Shown here in pieces: positions 12,321-32,782 of a DNA stretch of 36,275 nt (positions are counted from its first letter, which is position 1; each line of letters begins with the position of its first letter). This stretch comes from a virus. The notes beneath the pieces were generated by a model. That model ran no database searches, was not told where the DNA came from, and was given only the letters and a program-made list of their open reading frames with translations. The position numbers and the translations under genes are program-made. The DNA lies in IMG/VR virus record IMGVR_UViG_3300037234_000412, positions 1 to 36,275 of that record. One strand, given 5' to 3'.

Positions 12321-12851
12321 ATGCAAATTAAACAAGATCTATTAACAATCAATCCATTCAGTAGACCAGGTTACAAATTGAAGACTGTAAAAAAAATAGT
12401 TATTCATTATGTACAAAATCCAGAAACTACAGCAAAACAGAACCGTAACTTTTTTGAAATGAGAAAAGAGGGTAATCACGGTTATGGATCATCTCAGTAC
12501 ATTTGTGATGATACCGAAATACTCCAATGTATTCCAGACGATGAAATGGCTTACTGTGTAGGAGCAAAAGAATACACAGAGTTTGGTCTAAGTATATCTA
12601 ATTATCCAAATGACAGTACAATACATATCGAGTTTTGCCATCCAGACTTAACAGGTAGACCATGTGTAAAAACATATACTAACATTCTAGACTTATCAGA
12701 GCATCTATGTAAAAAGTTCAATCTCGACCCTGTAGAGGACATTTGCAGACACTTCGACATAACTGGTAAAGATTGCCCAAAGTACTATGTAGCGGTTCAA
12801 AGTGAGTGGTACAGATTAAAAGCCGATGTACTTTGTAGGTTGAATAATTGA
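12321..12851 (+). CDS. N-acetylmuramoyl-L-alanine amidase, Amidase_2 endolysin
   Basis: 176 residues. It cuts the bond between N-acetylmuramate and L-alanine of peptidoglycan. The Amidase_2 zinc site is visible: His29 in VIHY, His144 in CRHFDITGKDCP, Cys152 in the same motif; Glu104 lies in HIEFCHPD. INPFSRPG at 10-17 is typical of one branch of this family. No signal peptide, so release depends on the holin. RBS AGGAG precedes ATG 12321. Next to holin- and spanin-like genes, this is the lysis enzyme. Confidence 0.92.
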   Translation: MQIKQDLLTINPFSRPGYKLKTVKKIVIHYVQNPETTAKQNRNFFEMRKEGNHGYGSSQYICDDTEILQCIPDDEMAYCVGAKEYTEFGLSISNYPNDSTIHIEFCHPDLTGRPCVKTYTNILDLSEHLCKKFNLDPVEDICRHFDITGKDCPKYYVAVQSEWYRLKADVLCRLNN

Positions 12852-13211: not shown

Positions 13212-13655
13212 ATGCTATGCAAAAAATTATTATCACTATTATTATTACTCTCATTATTGTCACAATCGCTATACTCAGAGGTCGTTTTGACAGACGAAGA
13301 AGCGAACGAGATCGATCAAGCTTTAACAACATCGGAAACGGAAATAAATCTATTAAACAATCAAGTGACACTATTGCAAACGGACTTGATGGGATCCGAA
13401 ACACTAACGAGCGAATTAAAACTGGAATCGATAAGCTTGAACAATCAAATAACATTGCTACAAAAAGAGCCTTTAATATTAAACAACATAGTAACAATGC
13501 AAAATCAGGAATTGGAAAGGCTAAAAACATCCTCAAAAGAGCAAAAAACCGATAAACTAATAGAATCAGTAAAGCAGTTTTTTAATGGTTTTGTCTGGGG
13601 TGCATTACTTGGTTTATTTGGTGGAATCTATTTGGCTACAATATTAAACCACTAA
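13212..13655 (+). CDS. Signal-peptide coiled-coil protein with C-terminal membrane helix, spanin-like
   Basis: 147 residues. Signal-like start (KKLLSLLLLLSLLSQSLYS), a long Leu/Asn/Glu coiled coil, then a hydrophobic segment near 125-143. ATG 13212 has AGGGG at correct spacing. The only Cys (residue 3) is not in a lipobox, so it is not a plain Rz1-type lipoprotein. Its end overlaps the opposite-strand gene tail by 20 bases. Confidence 0.5.
   Translation: MLCKKLLSLLLLLSLLSQSLYSEVVLTDEEANEIDQALTTSETEINLLNNQVTLLQTDLMGSETLTSELKLESISLNNQITLLQKEPLILNNIVTMQNQELERLKTSSKEQKTDKLIESVKQFFNGFVWGALLGLFGGIYLATILNH
13217..13555 (+). CDS. Embedded i-spanin-like protein
   Basis: 112 residues in another frame, wholly inside the previous gene. 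A single N-terminal membrane helix (IIITIIITLIIVTIAIL) and a basic coiled-coil ectodomain match the layout of an Rz-type inner-membrane spanin. In the shared stretch both frames use more G/C third bases than the non-shared tail, which suggests both are under selection. Dual translation from closely placed ATGs at 13212 and 13217 is an inference. Confidence 0.5.
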   Translation: MQKIIITIIITLIIVTIAILRGRFDRRRSERDRSSFNNIGNGNKSIKQSSDTIANGLDGIRNTNERIKTGIDKLEQSNNIATKRAFNIKQHSNNAKSGIGKAKNILKRAKNR

Positions 13656-17424: not shown

Positions 17425-17472
17425 ATGATAATAAACATAGATAAAAATAGGAGTTTAGATAAATGCGTATAA
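17425..17472 (+). CDS. Possible 15-residue leader peptide
   Basis: ATG with GGGGAAGGG ahead and a stop overlapping the lipoprotein start. It may couple or tune lipoprotein translation. Small size makes this weak. Confidence 0.2.
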   Translation: MIINIDKNRSLDKCV

Positions 17473-18227
17473 CACCCTTAATAGTACTTTATACCATATT
17501 CGTACTTTTGTATAGTTGCGAACCAGTTACAGAGATCGAGTATGTAGAAACTGAGGTAGAAGTTGAAACTATAGTAGAAAAAGAAGTCATTATTGAAACT
17601 GAGGTTGAGGTCGAGGTGGAAATTGAAAAGGAAGTGGAAGTCGTAACCGTTGTGGAAACTGAAACTTTAATCGATAATGTTATTGAAACTATAAAAATAG
17701 AATATGTTAACAGAGAGGTATATATAATGAGTGAAGAAGAAGTGAAAGAGTTTATCATGGAACCAATTACAGAATATAGTAATTATGTTAGTAATGATAA
17801 TAAAGTTTTTGGTGTTACAAGTGAGGGTTTTGAAGAGATCGCTTTTATTAAAGGGCTGTTTAAAATTGATGGTGTTATTTATTTTGAAGCTGAGGAAAAG
17901 TTATATAGTCAGGTTGATGGTGTTTTGACTATTATTGATGAACTTCCAGTGGTTCCAGAAAGTGAGTATATTGAAACTACAGTTGTCGAAGGTGAAACAG
18001 CAATCCTAAGAATAACTAAAGACAAATACAACGATATTGATATATCGAAAGTGTATAATAGAAAACTTGAAGTTGCTTATTTGCAGATTGATAGTACTTG
18101 TATGCGTGGAGATGATCTTTTATATTCTGTATGTCAGGAATCGGGAACTAGAAAAGTAGGGGTTTATATATGGACTGTTAATAGTTCTAGTCCTCGTAGT
18201 GTTTTTGATAGTGGGCGTATTTGGTAG
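17463..18227 (+). CDS. Lipoprotein with Val/Glu repeat stalk
   Basis: 254 residues. Signal peptide with lipobox LLYSC (Cys19) marks a lipoprotein. Residues 22-78 alternate Glu with Val/Ile/Thr, low complexity that could form a beta stalk or extended fibre. A beta-rich domain follows (about 95-254) with a Cys pair near 218 and 229. AGGAG precedes ATG 17463. A phage-encoded lipoprotein may block superinfection or change the host surface; that is inference from family examples such as T5 Llp. It is separated from the fiber gene by a shared terminator. Confidence 0.6.
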   Translation: MRITPLIVLYTIFVLLYSCEPVTEIEYVETEVEVETIVEKEVIIETEVEVEVEIEKEVEVVTVVETETLIDNVIETIKIEYVNREVYIMSEEEVKEFIMEPITEYSNYVSNDNKVFGVTSEGFEEIAFIKGLFKIDGVIYFEAEEKLYSQVDGVLTIIDELPVVPESEYIETTVVEGETAILRITKDKYNDIDISKVYNRKLEVAYLQIDSTCMRGDDLLYSVCQESGTRKVGVYIWTVNSSSPRSVFDSGRIW

Positions 18228-18233
18228 AATAGA

Positions 18234-18260
18234 GGGGAGTTTTTACGCTCCCCTTTTTTT
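18234..18260 (+). terminator. Terminator after lipoprotein gene
   Basis: GGGGAG pairs with CTCCCC over an 8-base loop, then seven T on the plus strand. On the minus strand the tail is weaker, so late minus transcripts may pass. Confidence 0.7.
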
Positions 18261-19422
18261 ATGCGTCTATCATTGCTATTATATATGAGCTTCCTACTGT
18301 TAGACGTTTACCGTGAGTTGTTGTCCCTATTCTTGGCACTCCACTTACCCCGTCTGAAGAGATATTAGTAGCCGACCCCAAAGCATCCCCCCCAGGAGTA
18401 TTATTTCCAGCCGTAACCTCTGCTTGTATTCTAGATGTTGTCCCTGAGTTTTCACTAAAAACAGTGTGGTAATGTCCTTGGAACTGATCTTCTCTCAAAA
18501 CACCAACAACATCAGCATCACCACCAACCGATTGCGGAGTAGTAACATAATCACCAGTATCAATCAAAGTCCTAGTCCCTAAATTATCAGGTGCAATTAA
18601 ATCAACATAAGGATTAGTCAATAATAATGCCTCAAGATTACTATTACCAGTTACAACAGAACCATCTAAATGAACCATATGTAATTCTTTATTAACCGCA
18701 CCAACTTTAAACTTATTGATAAGTAATGAAGTATTAAAATTACCACCAGCCCTATCATTTACAGTGTGAAAATCTCCATCGATAACGGTTCCACGATTAG
18801 CAGCTCTTTTTAAATCTCTTGCACTGTCTGGCTCGTACCAGTATAAAGCATTATCAGGGTCACTTGGGTCGATTCCTTGGTTTGTTGCTTGCCCTGATGC
18901 GGAATATGTTATACCTTCTCGTCTAACAAGAGTTCCAGCGGTATTGTAGATTGTTCCAGCTTGCCATTGTGGTATTGCCCCTGAGTTATCACTTTTAATG
19001 TTGGAACCACCACCGACAAATTGAGCTAGTTCACCTTCGTCAATGTCGCTCCCTTCTGTTTCTGTTTTACTAAGCAATTGATCGTCTATATATTCAACAT
19101 TAGATTCATTACTGACATACGACCCAAAGTTTGAACCACTAACATTTAATTCAACACCAGTATAAGTAATGTTTGTAATTCTAATTTGACCATAAAGGGT
19201 CTTTCCAGATAGTCCACTTTCTTGCGTTGTTGCTTTTGTATCTGGTGCTATCTCGTAATTACTCCCTGGAATAGTTGTTCCACCCTCTTTAATTACAATA
19301 TCAGATAATAAGAATTTGTAATCTCCATCTAATTTAAAATGTGTCCATTCATTTAAAACAAAAGTTCCTATAAAAACATTACTTATTGTTTCAAATACTC
19401 CAGGTTTAATATCTCTTTGCAT
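18259..19422 (-). CDS. Tail fiber or adhesin-like protein
   Basis: 387 residues from ATG 19422, after AAGGAG; an upstream TTG at 19440 lies inside the preceding gene. Gly/Asn/Ser-rich, beta-rich. The C-terminal part resembles collar-type fibre tips: LREDQFQGHYHT (GHxH) near 315-325, then a Gly/Thr-rich loop and RLTVGSSYIIAMIDA. Last gene of the late module, where receptor-binding proteins are expected. Confidence 0.6.
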   Translation of the reverse strand: MQRDIKPGVFETISNVFIGTFVLNEWTHFKLDGDYKFLLSDIVIKEGGTTIPGSNYEIAPDTKATTQESGLSGKTLYGQIRITNITYTGVELNVSGSNFGSYVSNESNVEYIDDQLLSKTETEGSDIDEGELAQFVGGGSNIKSDNSGAIPQWQAGTIYNTAGTLVRREGITYSASGQATNQGIDPSDPDNALYWYEPDSARDLKRAANRGTVIDGDFHTVNDRAGGNFNTSLLINKFKVGAVNKELHMVHLDGSVVTGNSNLEALLLTNPYVDLIAPDNLGTRTLIDTGDYVTTPQSVGGDADVVGVLREDQFQGHYHTVFSENSGTTSRIQAEVTAGNNTPGGDALGSATNISSDGVSGVPRIGTTTHGKRLTVGSSYIIAMIDA

Positions 19423-19432
19423 ATTATTCTCC

Positions 19433-20920
19433 TTATTCAATTACCACTAAAGGTTGTGACAGTACGCCGTCAATCTCTTCGTGCATTGGTTGCGATAAAA
19501 TACCATCAATCATATTAAACATTGGTTGTGATAAAACTCCATCTATAACACCAGGTTCTTCAAAACCTGACCTTGCTTCTAACATTAAAACATCTTGACC
19601 CGGGTTAACTTCTCTAACAATCCATTCAGTTTTAGTTGAGAATTGCCGACCGTTTATATTGACATCAAGAATGATTAAATCTAATAGGTTTATTTCACTA
19701 GTATCTTGACCAGAATAAAAAGGTATGATCTCGGATAGTTCCCCAAATCTTTGCATGAGTCTAAGCCCTAGACTTTCCAAATCACCATTAGTATATAAAT
19801 CAACATTATACGATGAACGTTTAACTTTATCAAATAGAGTATCATCGCCTATGATCCTGTTGTTATCGTATATATTATTCTTAATATCCTTTTGAAAACT
19901 AAGAGATACCGAACTATTAAAATATTTCTGAGCATCTTTATAGTCTTTTTTCGGAAACTTAGTAGTTTTCCAGCTTGCTATTTCATGTTTCTTGTAAGTT
20001 CTACCCCATTGTCTCAATGTGAGAAAACCATCGTTCTTGGTAAACATAAAAGCATTATCATTTTTTAAAGCCTTATTAACTAAATCTCTAACAGTTCCAC
20101 CATCAAAATAAAAGTTGATGAATGAATCATTAGCTATGAACTCATTGGTTTCTGTAGTGTCCCAATTATCTGAGTTATATGTTATTAAAGCTTTTTCTTG
20201 AATCTCAGTTGTTATTATAGTTCCTATTCTATTATTTGTTCGACCTGTTACATCTGCACTTACTGCATCTATAGCGTTTATTTGTCCATCTACAGGATTA
20301 AAAGTAAAAGATATACTATTACCATCTTTATCGTAAACAGTTGTTACAGCAGTTATATAGTCCTTATCTATCGCTATATACTCCGATGGGTCAACTCTAA
20401 AAACCGGAACATTCAGAAGATCACCATAACCAATAGGTATGTCTTTATCCTTAACATTATCAAATACATTAGGATAATCGATTATATTAAAAGTATTACA
20501 GACTCGTTGAGTTAATGCCCTAAAAACATTATTAACAACTAACTTGACAGATTTTTCATTTACTACAGGATATGATATTTCACCCATGAGAATAGTTTTA
20601 AAATCTTCTAGTATAGGATTATTTTTATCAGTTCTTTTTAATGTTAAAACAGTATTAAACCAATCAAGAGATTCAACATCGTCATATTTTCCATCACCGT
20701 TTTCTATTTCTAGAGTATAGTTTGTTAATAAAGTACTACCCGATATTGAGTCTGATATTTTACTATTAACATTTGGAATTGCTAAGCGATTTTCATATTG
20801 GTATGTCATCCCTCCGAACTCTGGATACGTCCAATCAGATGGATTTATTTCATTTCTAATTGCACTAGAGAATCTATGAGTTATCGGGTTTCCAATTTCT
20901 ACTATGTATTTAATTCCCAC
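19433..20920 (-). CDS. Tail hub / baseplate-like protein
   Basis: 495 residues from GTG 20920 (its G shared with the upstream TAG). The start (SSAIRNEINPSDWTYPEFGG) and centre (DLVNKALKNDNAFMFTKNDGFLTLR, then DLESLGLRLMQRFGE) follow phage tail hub proteins that sit between tape measure and fibre. The last 37 residues are three copies of a 12-residue unit with core DGVLSQP, also found in the next gene upstream. Role inferred from position and pattern. Confidence 0.55.
   Translation of the reverse strand: MGIKYIVEIGNPITHRFSSAIRNEINPSDWTYPEFGGMTYQYENRLAIPNVNSKISDSISGSTLLTNYTLEIENGDGKYDDVESLDWFNTVLTLKRTDKNNPILEDFKTILMGEISYPVVNEKSVKLVVNNVFRALTQRVCNTFNIIDYPNVFDNVKDKDIPIGYGDLLNVPVFRVDPSEYIAIDKDYITAVTTVYDKDGNSISFTFNPVDGQINAIDAVSADVTGRTNNRIGTIITTEIQEKALITYNSDNWDTTETNEFIANDSFINFYFDGGTVRDLVNKALKNDNAFMFTKNDGFLTLRQWGRTYKKHEIASWKTTKFPKKDYKDAQKYFNSSVSLSFQKDIKNNIYDNNRIIGDDTLFDKVKRSSYNVDLYTNGDLESLGLRLMQRFGELSEIIPFYSGQDTSEINLLDLIILDVNINGRQFSTKTEWIVREVNPGQDVLMLEARSGFEEPGVIDGVLSQPMFNMIDGILSQPMHEEIDGVLSQPLVVIE
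19439..19546 (-). repeat. Three 36-base coding repeats (DGVLSQP unit), hub gene
   Basis: Three 12-residue units at residues 459-470, 471-482, 483-494: IDGVLSQPMFNM, IDGILSQPMHEE, IDGVLSQPLVVI. DNA copies differ at synonymous sites. Confidence 0.85.
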
Positions 20921-21714
20921 TAAAAAGCCTGCTTAAACTCAAATCTTTTAGAGTACTTAAAGCTATTTATTGAAGATTGAAATATTATTTTATTACTAGT
21001 CTTCCCATAGAACTTGTTAAATGGTAGCCAATTGTCATTATCAAAATCTAAAAAGAAAGGGAATCCTTGCATAGTTTGAGTTACATAAGCCCTTCTGAAA
21101 TCTTCTATAATATCACGGTCTATTTTATATCTGAAGTCTACACCGATAAGTCCACCACCATATCCACCAGCGGAAGGTATTACTTGACCCGAAAGTGTTT
21201 CTCTAGGTTTTACAGATGAATAGAATCCAGGTTCTCTACTTGGCGAAATACAAATTGCTCGACATTCACCTACAGCAATTCTACCCATATAAGTTCCGTT
21301 ATGGTCTATAGTCATTGTTGATGCTGTTATTGATTGACTGATCTCATAAAGCCCATCTTTAAAAGCTCTACCATCAGTTGAGTTGATAGTTATAGTTCCG
21401 TTAATAGTTAATTGTGTTGCATCTGTTCCACCAATACCAATACAATTAAATTCGTTTGAACCTGATACGCTTAGAGGTTGAGATAGTACACCGTCAATTG
21501 TGTTATACATAGGTTGCGATAATACACCATCATAATCATAAAAATATGGTTGAGATAAAACCCCATCGTAAATATTAAAAGTAGAATAGTCTTCAGGAAC
21601 CGTAAAATTGATAGTTAAAGTTCCTGTATTCAAATATCTATCTGCAAGAGATGGGCTTTTTAATTCATCTGGTAAATCTGAAAATTGTATTATATCGTTT
21701 ATTAGTATTTTCAT
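20920..21714 (-). CDS. Tail-tip protein with internal DGVLSQP repeats
   Basis: 264 residues. Its ATG overlaps the tape-measure stop (TAATG). Residues 49-84 are the triple 12-residue repeat. After that a beta-rich domain contains GECRAICISPSREPGFY and a Gly-rich GGYGGGLIGVDFRYK, in the position of lambda M/L-type minor tail proteins or a distal tail protein. Exact homologue not recognised. Confidence 0.55.
   Translation of the reverse strand: MKILINDIIQFSDLPDELKSPSLADRYLNTGTLTINFTVPEDYSTFNIYDGVLSQPYFYDYDGVLSQPMYNTIDGVLSQPLSVSGSNEFNCIGIGGTDATQLTINGTITINSTDGRAFKDGLYEISQSITASTMTIDHNGTYMGRIAVGECRAICISPSREPGFYSSVKPRETLSGQVIPSAGGYGGGLIGVDFRYKIDRDIIEDFRRAYVTQTMQGFPFFLDFDNDNWLPFNKFYGKTSNKIIFQSSINSFKYSKRFEFKQAF
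21463..21570 (-). repeat. Three 36-base coding repeats (DGVLSQP unit), tail-tip gene
   Basis: YDGVLSQPYFYD, YDGVLSQPMYNT, IDGVLSQPLSVS at residues 49-84. Same unit length and same last-copy variant (QPL) as in the hub gene. Confidence 0.85.
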
Positions 21715-24700
21715 TACGCTACACTCACCCCACCTTGTATATTATCTGTTGTTATTCGTATATCTCCATCTTCTATTCCATCGTTAATAATGTCAAGGAT
21801 GGTTTCTTTTCCTATTTGAATAGTTATGTTTTGACTATTGCCACCTTCACCTCTTGGCTTAACTGTCACTTGTTCGCCCTGAGATACATTTAAGCCGACA
21901 TTATCAGCACCTGAGTTATTGTTATTAGTTGGGACAGTAAAACCGCCTAAAGGGGTTCCTGTTTGTGCTGATGGTATTGGAGTAGATTCGAGTTGAGATA
22001 ATAACCCAGTATACAAAGATCTTACTTCTGCATGTAATGGGTTTAAATTCCCTGCTACATCATACACTGGAACCTCTGATATAGCTCTTAATTGCTCTAT
22101 CTTAGTTCTTGATATAGCTAAATCACGTGAGTATATTGCTTTCTCTCGTTCAAAAGCTCTCACATTAGCTTCGTAAGCTTCTTTAGCTTCTGCTTGTTGT
22201 GCTAATGAAGACTCTTTGATATTTACAATTTTTTCTTCATTACGTAACGTCTGAACTAATTCAAGATCACCAGCCGTTTGGGCTTCTGCTATCTCTCGGT
22301 TTATTCTCTCTGTTTCTGTTTCTGCTATTACTCCAGATGCTTTTAAGTTTGCTTGCTCTTTAGCTGTTAAGCCATTAACATACAACTTTATTTTATCATT
22401 TTCTAAATCTTTTAAACCTTGTATTTCATCTTTATACTCTTCATCAAGTAATGCTTTCCGTCTATTAAACTCCTCGTTATCAAATTGTTCTTGAAGATTA
22501 AGTTTTTCGGTCAAATATTTTTCATCAGAATCAATTTTCATCTTAGCAATTCTTTTAATTCTCTGCTGTTCTTCTGACTCTATTTCATCGTTTAAGCCTG
22601 ACATTCCTTTAACAAAGCCTTCCCATAAGCCTTCCCACCATTTTTGATTGCCTATATTTTTTACGGCTGCTATTACATCGTCCATTGCCACTTTGACAGA
22701 CTCTCCTAAAGCTTCGCCCATTTCATCACCAGAACCACTAAAAATATCTATCATAACACCAATAGCGTTTAATGCTACGGCTGCAATCTCTAGCTCGACC
22801 ATTCCTGTAGATTCACCAATCATACCAACAAACTCGCCGTATGCACCAACAGATATTTCAAGCTGTCCATCTGCTAGTTTTTGAGCTTGGCTTAGTGCCA
22901 TATCTGTAAAGTCTAATACCTGTTGTACTTCTGCGTCATTTGCTGCTTTCTTTGCTTCTTTTTCTATTACTAGATTATCTTGTAAAACTTTTAGCTTGTC
23001 GGCTTCTGCTTTCTTAAAGTCTTGTACGTTTTGATTTATTGCATCCGTTCTTTCTTGAGCAACAGCGTCCTGTTTATCCTGTAATATTCTAATAGCTGCT
23101 AATTGATCGTCTTTAAGTTCACCTTCTCTTAGTGCTAATGTAGAAATGAAATCAATTTGTTCTTGGATTATCTCAATCTCGTCTTTTTTAGTACCTAAAA
23201 TACTTTGGACTGCTTCATTTTGATCTACATATGATTTAAGTATTGCGTCTGATGATTCCTTTTCTTTTATTATTTTCTCTGCTAATAATCTAGCTTCCTC
23301 TTTTTCTTTGTCAATAAGGTCTTGCTTTGCTTTAATCTCTAAACGAATAGCACTTTCAATCCTTCTAGCAACTTGGTTTTGCTCATATAATACTTCCAGC
23401 TGTTCTTGCCATTTCTTTCTAAATTTATCATTTGTTGCCCTTGAATACATATCTTCTAGTTTATCAATCTCAACTGAGTTTTCAGCTATTTGTCTTTTAA
23501 CTACAGATAATTTATCGGCTGTTTCAATAGTCCCATCTTTAAAAGCATCCTGTATTCTTTTACTTTCTTTAAACTTACTAATCATTCCTGTTTGTGCTTC
23601 AATTAGTCCTAGTGTTGCGACTGTTAATGTAGCTATTGCAGCAGCAGCAAACACGGCTGGATTAGCTGCCATTGCTAGGTTTAAAGCTTTAACGGCTTTA
23701 GTTAGTGTTGATATAACCATTGCCCCTTTTGTTGCTACAGTGAATGTTATTAGACCAGCAGCTACAGATGAAGTAACTACAGCTATAGTTTTGAGTACTT
23801 CTTCTAGGTTGTCACCTTCTGCTATAAAATCAGCAACTTTATTTACAGAATCTGTCATCGCTGGTAGTAATTTTCCAGCTAGTTCTGATCTAACCCCTAT
23901 AAATGCTTGTGCTATATTTCTTTGAGCATCAACAAAGTCCTCCGATTGTCTTGCTACATCTTCAGATATTAAACCGTATCTTGATGCTTCATCTCTTAAT
24001 TTTTGTATTCCCTCAGCACCTTCATTAGCAAATAATATTAAATCTTGACCAGCTCGACCAAATGCAGCTTGCGACAATGCAGCCTTATCGAATTGTGTTG
24101 GAGCTTTTGCAATTGCATCAATAAGCAGATTAAAAGCTTCCTCTGAGTCTGTAGTACTTAATAATTGCTCTTTCAATGCTACATCTGATTTATTTAAAAA
24201 GGTTGTAAGTGTTCCTGTACCAACTTGCAAATCACCAATATTCCTATTTAATTTTTGAAATAGTCCTGATAAATTATTAGCTGGTAATCCTGTTCTTTCA
24301 GCTGCAAAACTTAACTCCTGTAAAGCTTCAACACTTACTCCGACCTTACGTGATGTTTTTGCTAGATCATCACCCATTTTTGATATGTCTATTGTTGATT
24401 TTACCATAGCAACACCAACCGCAATAGCTGCAATACCTATAGCTTTTAATGCTATGGTTGCATTTTTTGATGCTGATTCCATAGCCTTTGTTTTCTGAGT
24501 TGTTTCGTCGTATTCTTTTTGTAATCTATTATATTCTTCGTTTAATTTTTGTATGCTTTTATCTTGTGGGTCTAATCCGTTTCTGATTAAAGATATTGAT
24601 TGCCTTTCTAATGCTTTCTGTTGAGCAATGATTGCTTGAGTATCTGTTTTATTAGCTCTCATTCCAGCACCAAGTCTTCTATTTTTATCAATGAACTTAT

Positions 24701-24836
24701 CTATTGATTCACCTTTAAAACTCTTCTGATACTTCTCTACTTGCTTTCTTTGAGACTCTGTTAGAGTTCCAAACTTTTTTAAATCTTTAGAAGCCTGATC
24801 AAAATCACTTTTTATCTTTAAGTTAATACTAGCCAT
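21714..24836 (-). CDS. Tape measure protein
   Basis: 1040 residues from ATG 24836, with GGAG 11 bases ahead; a TTG at 24872 lacks a ribosome site. Long helical protein with coiled coils and Glu/Lys/Gln-rich stretches. A hydrophobic pair occurs in the middle third (TIAVVTSSVAAGLITF and a later Ala-rich helix), as in TMPs that insert in the membrane during DNA entry. Its length sets tail length. It starts inside the gpT-like frame's end, the classic order GT then H. Confidence 0.9.
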   Translation of the reverse strand: MASINLKIKSDFDQASKDLKKFGTLTESQRKQVEKYQKSFKGESIDKFIDKNRRLGAGMRANKTDTQAIIAQQKALERQSISLIRNGLDPQDKSIQKLNEEYNRLQKEYDETTQKTKAMESASKNATIALKAIGIAAIAVGVAMVKSTIDISKMGDDLAKTSRKVGVSVEALQELSFAAERTGLPANNLSGLFQKLNRNIGDLQVGTGTLTTFLNKSDVALKEQLLSTTDSEEAFNLLIDAIAKAPTQFDKAALSQAAFGRAGQDLILFANEGAEGIQKLRDEASRYGLISEDVARQSEDFVDAQRNIAQAFIGVRSELAGKLLPAMTDSVNKVADFIAEGDNLEEVLKTIAVVTSSVAAGLITFTVATKGAMVISTLTKAVKALNLAMAANPAVFAAAAIATLTVATLGLIEAQTGMISKFKESKRIQDAFKDGTIETADKLSVVKRQIAENSVEIDKLEDMYSRATNDKFRKKWQEQLEVLYEQNQVARRIESAIRLEIKAKQDLIDKEKEEARLLAEKIIKEKESSDAILKSYVDQNEAVQSILGTKKDEIEIIQEQIDFISTLALREGELKDDQLAAIRILQDKQDAVAQERTDAINQNVQDFKKAEADKLKVLQDNLVIEKEAKKAANDAEVQQVLDFTDMALSQAQKLADGQLEISVGAYGEFVGMIGESTGMVELEIAAVALNAIGVMIDIFSGSGDEMGEALGESVKVAMDDVIAAVKNIGNQKWWEGLWEGFVKGMSGLNDEIESEEQQRIKRIAKMKIDSDEKYLTEKLNLQEQFDNEEFNRRKALLDEEYKDEIQGLKDLENDKIKLYVNGLTAKEQANLKASGVIAETETERINREIAEAQTAGDLELVQTLRNEEKIVNIKESSLAQQAEAKEAYEANVRAFEREKAIYSRDLAISRTKIEQLRAISEVPVYDVAGNLNPLHAEVRSLYTGLLSQLESTPIPSAQTGTPLGGFTVPTNNNNSGADNVGLNVSQGEQVTVKPRGEGGNSQNITIQIGKETILDIINDGIEDGDIRITTDNIQGGVSVA

Positions 24837-25227
24837 TTCTGAACCGACTCCTTTTTTCTTGGTAAAATTCAATGCTTTTCTGCATATTATTAAAGTACTT
24901 TAAAAAATCCAATGTCCAAGGCAATTCATCAAGTGTACCTTTTCCATGGGGTAACATATTAAAATGATGCCAATTTTCCCAAATGTTATAGTAATAATAA
25001 TAAGCTCTGTATAACTCTGTCACATTATCAAACTTGATTCTATTGTCGTCTGAATCAAATATCATAAACGACTCGTTATTCCTAAACTTTTTAATATTAC
25101 CAGAAGTAATAAAATAACCTCCGGCTAATTCTTCTATATCATCCTCGAAAAGAGCATCATTATATACCGACTCGTCAAAATCTCCGTACTGAAGACAAAA
25201 GATTATTCCGAGTCGTTGCCTTCCCCC
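24829..25227 (-). CDS. gpT-like extension, made by -1 frameshift
   Basis: The -1 frame is open from 25239 to its stop at 24829, giving about 133 residues if entered at the GGGGG run. It holds a helical, aromatic-rich protein (AYYYYYNIWENWHHFNMLP). The only ATG in frame (25065) has no good ribosome site and would cut off half the frame, so translation through a slip from the 25604 gene is favoured. Lambda gpGT is the model: an assembly chaperone binding the tape measure. Confidence 0.65.
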   Translation of the reverse strand, partial: GGRQRLGIIFCLQYGDFDESVYNDALFEDDIEELAGGYFITSGNIKKFRNNESFMIFDSDDNRIKFDNVTELYRAYYYYYNIWENWHHFNMLPHGKGTLDELPWTLDFLKYFNNMQKSIEFYQEKRSRFRNG

Positions 25228-31864: not shown

Positions 31865-32782
31865 TTAGTTATTCCCTTGTAATTCTTGGAATCGTTCATC
31901 TGTTATTAGTAGTATATGGAATGTAGCCCAAACTGGAGTATCATTTGCACCTACAACAACAGCTCTTATTGCTAAATCTGTTTGTGGTGGAATTATATCT
32001 TGGAATGGTCTTAAATCTTGATAGTATGGCGAACCTTGATTTGTTACCCCGAAATCTTTTTTTTCTTTAAATACTTTTCCTTTTCTTCTTGAAAGATATG
32101 AAAATTCACACTCATTAGCCGAACCACCTCTTGTAATTCCAGCCTCACCCCTATAAAGAAAACCCCAGAAACCCGAAGGTATAGTATACATTAATTGTTT
32201 ACTTTGATTCTTTGATACACCTAAAGGGATATATGACAATATTTTATCATGAGTTTGTGGAACACCTGTAACTACAGTATTGTCATAGTATACATATACA
32301 TCACCAAGTAAATCATCACCCATATCGGCTTCACTTTCAGCCCTAAAACATCTAACAACAGGATCGCCACTAGGAGTGACAATAGCTTTTTGAGTTTGTC
32401 CTTCCAGTGTCACTGTGACATCTTCAAGATTCCAATTACCTAAACCGTCAAGAGTTAATACACTTACAATAATATCTTGCGTATCGTCTGTATCTGAACT
32501 TGAAATATAAAGAGTTTCCCCTAGGTCATTTCCCCATCCGTAACCATCACCAAGTGGCCATATGTATTCTGGAGTTGTTGCGGTATCAACATCTGGATTA
32601 CTTCCGAACTTGTCAACAATTGACATTCCTTCCTCTAATCCCATTGATACTCTGGTTTCAAAAGGTATTTGACTACCAAATCCTCCAGGAGTTGCAACAA
32701 GCATTGCACGCTGATATTTTCCGATTTCATCTTTAACGGAACAATCATTATTATTACTACTCATGTAATCTATATCAGACAA
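31865..32782 (-). CDS. Structural protein of unknown role
   Basis: 305 residues. TTG 32782 has AGGGGG five bases ahead; the first in-frame ATG (residue 7) has none. Beta-rich, with an NPDVDTATTPEYIWPLGDGY stretch common in phage structural proteins of unknown role from marine sets. It lies between large terminase and gpW, an insertion into the lambda order, behind its own candidate promoter. Confidence 0.6.
   Translation of the reverse strand: MSDIDYMSSNNNDCSVKDEIGKYQRAMLVATPGGFGSQIPFETRVSMGLEEGMSIVDKFGSNPDVDTATTPEYIWPLGDGYGWGNDLGETLYISSSDTDDTQDIIVSVLTLDGLGNWNLEDVTVTLEGQTQKAIVTPSGDPVVRCFRAESEADMGDDLLGDVYVYYDNTVVTGVPQTHDKILSYIPLGVSKNQSKQLMYTIPSGFWGFLYRGEAGITRGGSANECEFSYLSRRKGKVFKEKKDFGVTNQGSPYYQDLRPFQDIIPPQTDLAIRAVVVGANDTPVWATFHILLITDERFQELQGNN

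What the first reader, a model, noticed from the sequence alone, without database searches (positions are those of the whole stretch)
19439..21570. Same triple 12-residue repeat in two adjacent tail-tip proteins
The hub protein ends in three 12-residue units (core DGVLSQP) and the neighbouring tail-tip protein has three at residues 49-84. Unit length, copy number and the last-copy QPL variant agree. DNA copies differ at synonymous sites, so the protein sequence is kept by selection. One array is terminal and the other internal, as if a short module had been copied between genes. It might be a docking motif between the two proteins or a surface epitope. I know no tail family with it.
Basis: partly seen in the sequence, partly recalled or inferred. 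Interest (0 to 1): 0.75.

Follow-up and report, generated by a model that had tools for sequence, protein, structure and literature searches.

The report
Tail-fibre docking repeats at phage tip
Two neighbouring proteins at the tail tip of a probable spirochaete virus carry the same three short repeated peptides, which most likely act as sockets that hold the virus's host-recognising fibre and have changed together as the fibre was exchanged.

Summary
The tail-tip protein (20920-21714, -) and hub (19433-20920, -) each hold three 12-residue DG[VI]LSQP units (SW 124 vs shuffled maximum 40). Three independent virus contigs have both arrays (window, L003, L005). Unit length and spacers change together in the two genes: 12-residue IDGVLSQPM, 12-residue FSGVLSQPQT, 7-residue TLSQPxx. 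L007 and L014 have only a degenerate hub array, so the hub array is probably older and the tip array a later copy. The tip protein is predicted to be a discoidin/CBM32-like plus a Dit-like domain; the array is its only low-confidence stretch, a loop insertion absent from other relatives aligned. The hub array is a C-terminal tail. In 22 of 22 phages compared, the kind of hub tail (none, ~28-residue, ~43-residue acidic, triple array) matches the N-terminal class of the next gene (fibre), through about seven switches on the hub-core tree. Best reading: a short-motif array that docks the fibre, one motif per chain of a fibre trimer, copied from hub to Dit. Hub C-termini and Dit arms are known fibre sockets (JBD30, p2). 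Binding is not shown, and adjacency of tail and fibre gene could explain part of the matching.

The parts
20920..21714 (-). Tail-tip protein (264 aa): discoidin/CBM32-like domain (about residues 1-153) plus Dit/gpM-like domain (about 154-264)
   Evidence: ORF; AF2 model pLDDT 80.9, pTM 0.76; VIA-align Z about 8 to CBM32/F5-8C domains; Foldseek hits to GTA 6tba (TMt 0.48), diffocin baseplate 8v3w (0.48) and lambda tail tip chain 8iyk_E (0.58); sits between tape measure and hub
21463..21570 (-). Internal array, residues 49-84: 3 x 12 units DGVLSQP; loop insertion between strands 32-37 and 88-94
   Evidence: absent from ten other relatives aligned; only segment with pLDDT < 50 is 49-84
19433..20920 (-). 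Hub protein (495 aa), GTG start
   Evidence: ORF; weak match to phrog_8917, unknown function; gene order tape measure - tip - hub - fibre; the hub role is inferred from gene order, its fold was not predicted
19436..19546 (-). C-terminal array of the hub: 3 x 12 units DG[VI]LSQP, the hub's tail
18259..19422 (-). Fibre / receptor-binding protein gene (387 aa from the ATG at 19422)
   Evidence: C-terminal part matches tail fibre phrog_9777, E 2.3e-4; also phrog_2282, E 0.0016
19063..19422 (-). N-terminal domain of the fibre, proposed partner of the arrays
   Evidence: alignment A5; present next to every array-bearing hub; no PDB or phage-collection match
21714..24872 (-). Tape measure protein upstream of the tip gene
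   Evidence: phrog_8462 E 2.2e-36

Best explanation
The triple repeats are docking arrays for the fibre / receptor-binding protein encoded next to the hub. The hub's C-terminal tail is a flexible peptide with three copies of a short motif (core GxLSQP, in distant relatives GxxSxP) that binds the fibre's N-terminal domain; three motifs in one chain would serve the three chains of one fibre trimer. In the lineage of the window, L003 and L005 a copy of the array was placed in a loop of the discoidin-like domain of the Dit-like tip protein, giving the same fibre (or a relative of it) a second ring of attachment sites. Because both arrays must fit the same partner, motif, spacer and spacing change together in the two genes. 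SHOWN: the arrays, their conservation, joint change of period and spacers, absence of the tip array from hub-array relatives, loop position, matching of hub tail class with next-gene class. INFERRED: physical binding, one motif per fibre chain, extra fibres on the Dit ring.
For: (1) Joint change: the best tip-hub match is the partner in the same phage in all three phages (spacer identity 0.50/0.58/0.33 within against 0.00-0.28 between), including a joint difference of period, 12 against 7 in L005. (2) Silent sites between the two arrays are near saturation in L003 and L005 (pS 0.85, 0.73) while pN is 0.20-0.32: the likeness is held by selection on the protein, not by recent gene conversion. 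(3) L007 and L014 have the triple hub array but no tip array. (4) Hub tail class matches next-gene N-terminal class in 22/22 phages. Classes were set on the first phages and then held in all 8 new distinct hubs whose next gene could be read. On the hub-core tree the class changes 7 times; 5/5 independent pairs on well-supported branches agree. (5) The array is the only low-confidence stretch (49-84) of an otherwise confident tip model. (6) Precedents: in JBD30 the hub C-terminus docks into the centre of the RBP trimer's N-terminal helical bundle, and distal tail proteins take part in fibre attachment (PMC11445458); in p2 a Dit arm extension holds the RBP N-terminal domain (PMC3893620).
Against: No binding was tested and no complex predicted. 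Hub tail and fibre N-terminus are adjacent in the DNA, so they could be exchanged together without touching. L032 has the fibre domain with an unrelated hub and no array; L051's genome has an Mtd_N-type protein one gene further on although its hub has no tail. The sign test on supported branches is 5/5, p 0.06 only. Tip arrays are known from only three phages. Low pLDDT is not proof of disorder.
Confidence: 0.6

Rival explanations
1. The two arrays bind each other (or a shared groove) and hold Dit-like ring and hub together.
For: They lie in adjacent tail-tip proteins and change together.
Against: L007 and L014 keep the hub array without a tip array; most relatives do without either array. Identical short motifs are a common sign of one shared partner rather than of self-pairing.
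Confidence: 0.1
2. The arrays are direct host-binding peptides: multivalent adhesive loops on the discoidin-like domain and the hub end that touch the spirochaete surface.
For: The tip array sits in a loop of a CBM32/discoidin-like domain; phage-specific spacers could follow the host.
Against: Does not explain why the hub tail type follows the class of the next gene's N-terminal domain.
Confidence: 0.12
3. Linkage only: hub tail and fibre gene are swapped as one DNA segment and the tail has no binding role; the tip array arose by a chance copy and both are tolerated linkers.
For: Tail and fibre gene are contiguous; tails are short and vary.
Against: The tip array lies on the far side of the hub core (about 1.4 kb), yet keeps period and spacers in step with the hub tail; silent sites are near saturated while the protein is kept.
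Confidence: 0.13

Closest known systems
Hub C-terminus docking into the receptor-binding-protein trimer of Pseudomonas phage JBD30 (gp53-gp54; PMC11445458)
   Same: C-terminal end of the hub holds one RBP trimer per hub chain
   Different: JBD30 uses a hub C-terminus inside a helical bundle, and no tandem motif array is mentioned in the passages read; here three tandem motifs, also present in the Dit-like protein
Arm extension of the Dit protein of lactococcal phage p2 (ORF15) that anchors the RBP N-terminus (PMC3893620)
   Same: Insertion in the beta-sandwich domain of a Dit protein that holds (here: is proposed to hold) the RBP
   Different: p2's arm extends a galectin domain placed after the ring domain and is ordered; here a repeated, probably flexible loop in a discoidin-like domain placed before the ring domain
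[quoted passage not shown]
   Same: A loop of a tip protein plugs into an RBP trimer
   Different: Single loop per chain, no array, different protein

Membership tests
Dit / distal tail protein (tip protein) | gene directly after the tape measure, before the hub | tested here: met
   same order in most relatives read
Dit / distal tail protein (tip protein) | tail-tube-like beta-sandwich with flanking helix | tested here: inconclusive
   residues 154-264: beta-helix-beta; Foldseek hits to tip, baseplate and tube proteins with TMt 0.48-0.58 but E above 0.001
Discoidin / F5-8C / CBM32 domain (tip residues 1-153) | jelly-roll fold | tested here: inconclusive
   VIA-align Z 7-8.6 over about 100 residues, top rows mostly this fold; no Pfam hit
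Hub with RBP-docking C-terminus (JBD30-like) | gp27/pb3-like hub fold | not tested
Hub with RBP-docking C-terminus (JBD30-like) | C-terminal tail beyond the core, matched to the RBP N-terminal domain | tested here: met
   22/22 class match
Hub with RBP-docking C-terminus (JBD30-like) | direct contact of hub C-terminus with RBP trimer | not testable with these tools
   no complex prediction available
Choline/cell-wall-binding repeats | family profile match; conserved aromatic residues in units of about 20 residues | tested here: not met
   no Pfam hit at 0.1; L003 and L005 units lack the aromatic residues and have period 12 or 7

The most novel reading that the evidence does not exclude
The tail tip uses a small peptide code: each class of fibre N-terminal domain has its own class of hub C-terminal tail, and in one class the code is a three-motif array (one motif per fibre chain) that can be copied into the Dit ring to multiply fibre sites on the same virion.
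Probability: 0.35. Interest if true: 0.7.

Novelty: new variant of a known kind. Interest (0 to 1): 0.55.

Why it matters
How fibres are held at siphophage tips, and how phages exchange them without losing fit, is known from few structures. Here sequence alone suggests a short, portable docking peptide that follows fibre class, and a case where the peptide was copied to a second tip protein. If true it gives a testable rule for which fibre N-terminus fits which tail tip, in a phage group (probable spirochaete phages) with no relative found in the annotated phage collection.

Tried and rejected
No match for tip, hub, fibre, fibre N-domain or array alone in 50,697 annotated phage records. A period-12 tandem pattern scan of all viral contigs found only L003's contig, so this array is rare; other periods were not scanned. 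First structure job with 6 sequences failed (pLDDT 34.6); 21 sequences worked. Profile searches of PDB with tip, hub and fibre domain: nothing meaningful; array alone: one hit at E 5.6, chance. Spirochaete genomes hold relatives of tip and hub, but none of those read has a tip array. Recent gene conversion as the sole cause of likeness rejected for L003 and L005 by silent-site divergence. Unit-by-unit register between the arrays of the window is best in order 1-2-3 (66/90) but 2-1-3 is almost as good (65/90), so no claim is made. A stricter form of the idea, 'the fibre domain always comes with a hub array', was refuted by L032. My regular expression missed the class ii next genes; they were read by eye.

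Full report
THE OBSERVATION. The window is a complete IMG/VR virus record of 36,275 bases with a siphophage-type late region on the minus strand: terminase, portal, Clp-like protease, major head protein, tail protein, tape measure, tip protein, hub, fibre. The tip protein (20920-21714) holds DGVLSQPYFYDY-DGVLSQPMYNTI-DGVLSQPL at residues 50-81; the hub (19433-20920) ends with DGVLSQPMFNMI-DGILSQPMHEEI-DGVLSQPLVVIE. The two arrays align without gaps over 36 residues with score 124, against a best of 40 in 300 shuffles. This is far beyond chance.

RELATIVES. No relative was found among annotated phages. IMG/VR gave L003 (tip 61%, hub 54% identical) and L005 (72%, 67%), both with triple arrays in the same two places. 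In L003 the units are FSGVLSQPQTxx in both proteins; in L005 the period is 7 in both (GTLSQPGATLSQPGITLSQPM and GVLSQPQETLSQPQETQSKPI). L007 and L014 have no array in the tip protein but a degenerate 3 x 12 array at the hub end (SGTMSYP/SGIMSHL/SGELTNP; YGYLSHP/SGVASFP/SGITSMP). All other relatives read have neither. Spirochaete genome bins (Treponema and Spirochaetaceae by record title) carry related tip and hub genes, which points to spirochaete hosts.

JOINT CHANGE. For each of the three phages with two arrays, the nearest hub array to the tip array is that of the same phage (normalised scores 0.69, 0.55, 0.52 within; at most 0.43 for tip-hub pairs of different phages), and spacers agree within phages (0.50, 0.58, 0.33) better than between phages (0.28 or less). 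Yet silent sites between the two arrays are strongly diverged (pS 0.48, 0.85, 0.73) and replacement sites are not (pN 0.23, 0.20, 0.32). So the likeness is maintained by selection on the protein; in L003 and L005 it cannot be recent copying alone. The numbers of codons are small (24-34).

PLACE IN THE STRUCTURE. With 21 relatives AlphaFold2 gave a confident tip model (pLDDT 80.9). Residues 49-84, exactly the array, are the only stretch under 50, between strands 32-37 and 88-94. Residues 1-153 resemble discoidin/CBM32 jelly rolls (Z about 8); the rest resembles tail-tube and distal-tail proteins, such as a chain of the lambda tail tip (8iyk_E, TMt 0.58) and the GTA (6tba, 0.48), at weak E-values. 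Similar folds occur in phage proteins of unknown function. Lambda gpM forms the hexameric distal-tail ring (PMC10721106).

HUB TAILS FOLLOW THE FIBRE. After the conserved QDxLxLE end of the hub core, relatives have one of four tails: none or up to 11 residues; 26-31 residues with TFDGxxAxxD; 39-45 acidic residues ending around DGG; or the triple array. The next gene's N-terminus falls in four matching classes: TGYQRQN; PGRDxxGDFK; Mtd_N-like KVGDGxTxW (Pfam PF18454, E 1.9e-5 in L047, just under its curated cut-off); and the domain of alignment A5. I wrote the rule down from the first phages; eight further distinct hubs with a readable next gene, found afterwards, all obeyed it; in total 22/22. 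On a tree of hub cores without the tails the class changes seven times, and all five independent pairs on well-supported branches agree (p 0.06, because five pairs cannot give less; seven pairs exist on the best tree). Class ii phages read (L008, L009, L058) also have a TGYQRQN-type gene further downstream, so that protein does not need a hub tail.

MECHANISM. The simplest account is that hub tails are sockets for the fibre. There is a direct precedent: in JBD30 the C-terminus of the hub docks into the centre of the RBP trimer's N-terminal bundle, with three RBP trimers per hub trimer, and distal tail proteins help form fibre attachment sites (PMC11445458). In p2 an arm of the Dit protein holds the RBP N-terminal domain, and in TP901-1 a loop plugs the RBP trimer (PMC3893620). 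A single hub chain facing a threefold fibre could offer one motif to each fibre chain, which would explain why there are three copies in every array at two different spacings; this step is inference. The tip array would then add Dit-borne sites for the same fibre.

LIMITS. Adjacency of hub tail and fibre gene means that joint exchange could occur without contact; the tip array, on the other side of the hub core, is the part of the evidence that linkage does not explain. L032 shows that a fibre of this class can live with an unrelated hub without array, and in L051 an Mtd_N-type protein lies one gene beyond although the hub has no tail. No complex could be predicted. The hub role rests on gene order.

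Noticed in passing
window 17463-18227 (+): Convergent to the fibre gene: a 254-aa protein with a lipoprotein-like start (LLYSC), a VETEVEVE-rich stretch and C-terminal GRIW. L003 has a weak relative in the same place (25%, E 5e-8). Possibly a surface lipoprotein of superinfection-exclusion type.
   Followed up: partly
window 13212-13655 (+) and 13217-13555 (+): Two overlapping membrane/lipoprotein-like ORFs in different frames just after an amidase-like endolysin (12321-12851): looks like a nested spanin (Rz/Rz1-type) pair.
   Followed up: no
L022/L039 and L075 (genome G001, contig C214): In this Treponema bin the hub (with one in-frame TAG) lies upstream of the tip gene and the Mtd_N-type fibre gene follows the tip gene directly: gene order differs from the other relatives.
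   Followed up: no
L020 7681-8365: A DNA methylase-like gene starts where the hub gene would start, while the hub lies at the other end of the same contig (L056): an insertion between tip and hub, or an effect of circular permutation.
   Followed up: no
L007 6645-9872: Hub enlarged to 1075 aa by a long N-terminal extension with Ig-like sequence before the hub core.
   Followed up: no
L051, L052, L053 and L022 tip proteins: Other, non-repeated insertions in the same discoidin-like domain at a different loop (about alignment A6 columns 116-180).
   Followed up: no
window 31865-32782 (-): Protein between terminase and portal matching phrog_8198 (E 5e-16), unknown function; unusual place, possibly a head decoration protein.
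   Followed up: no
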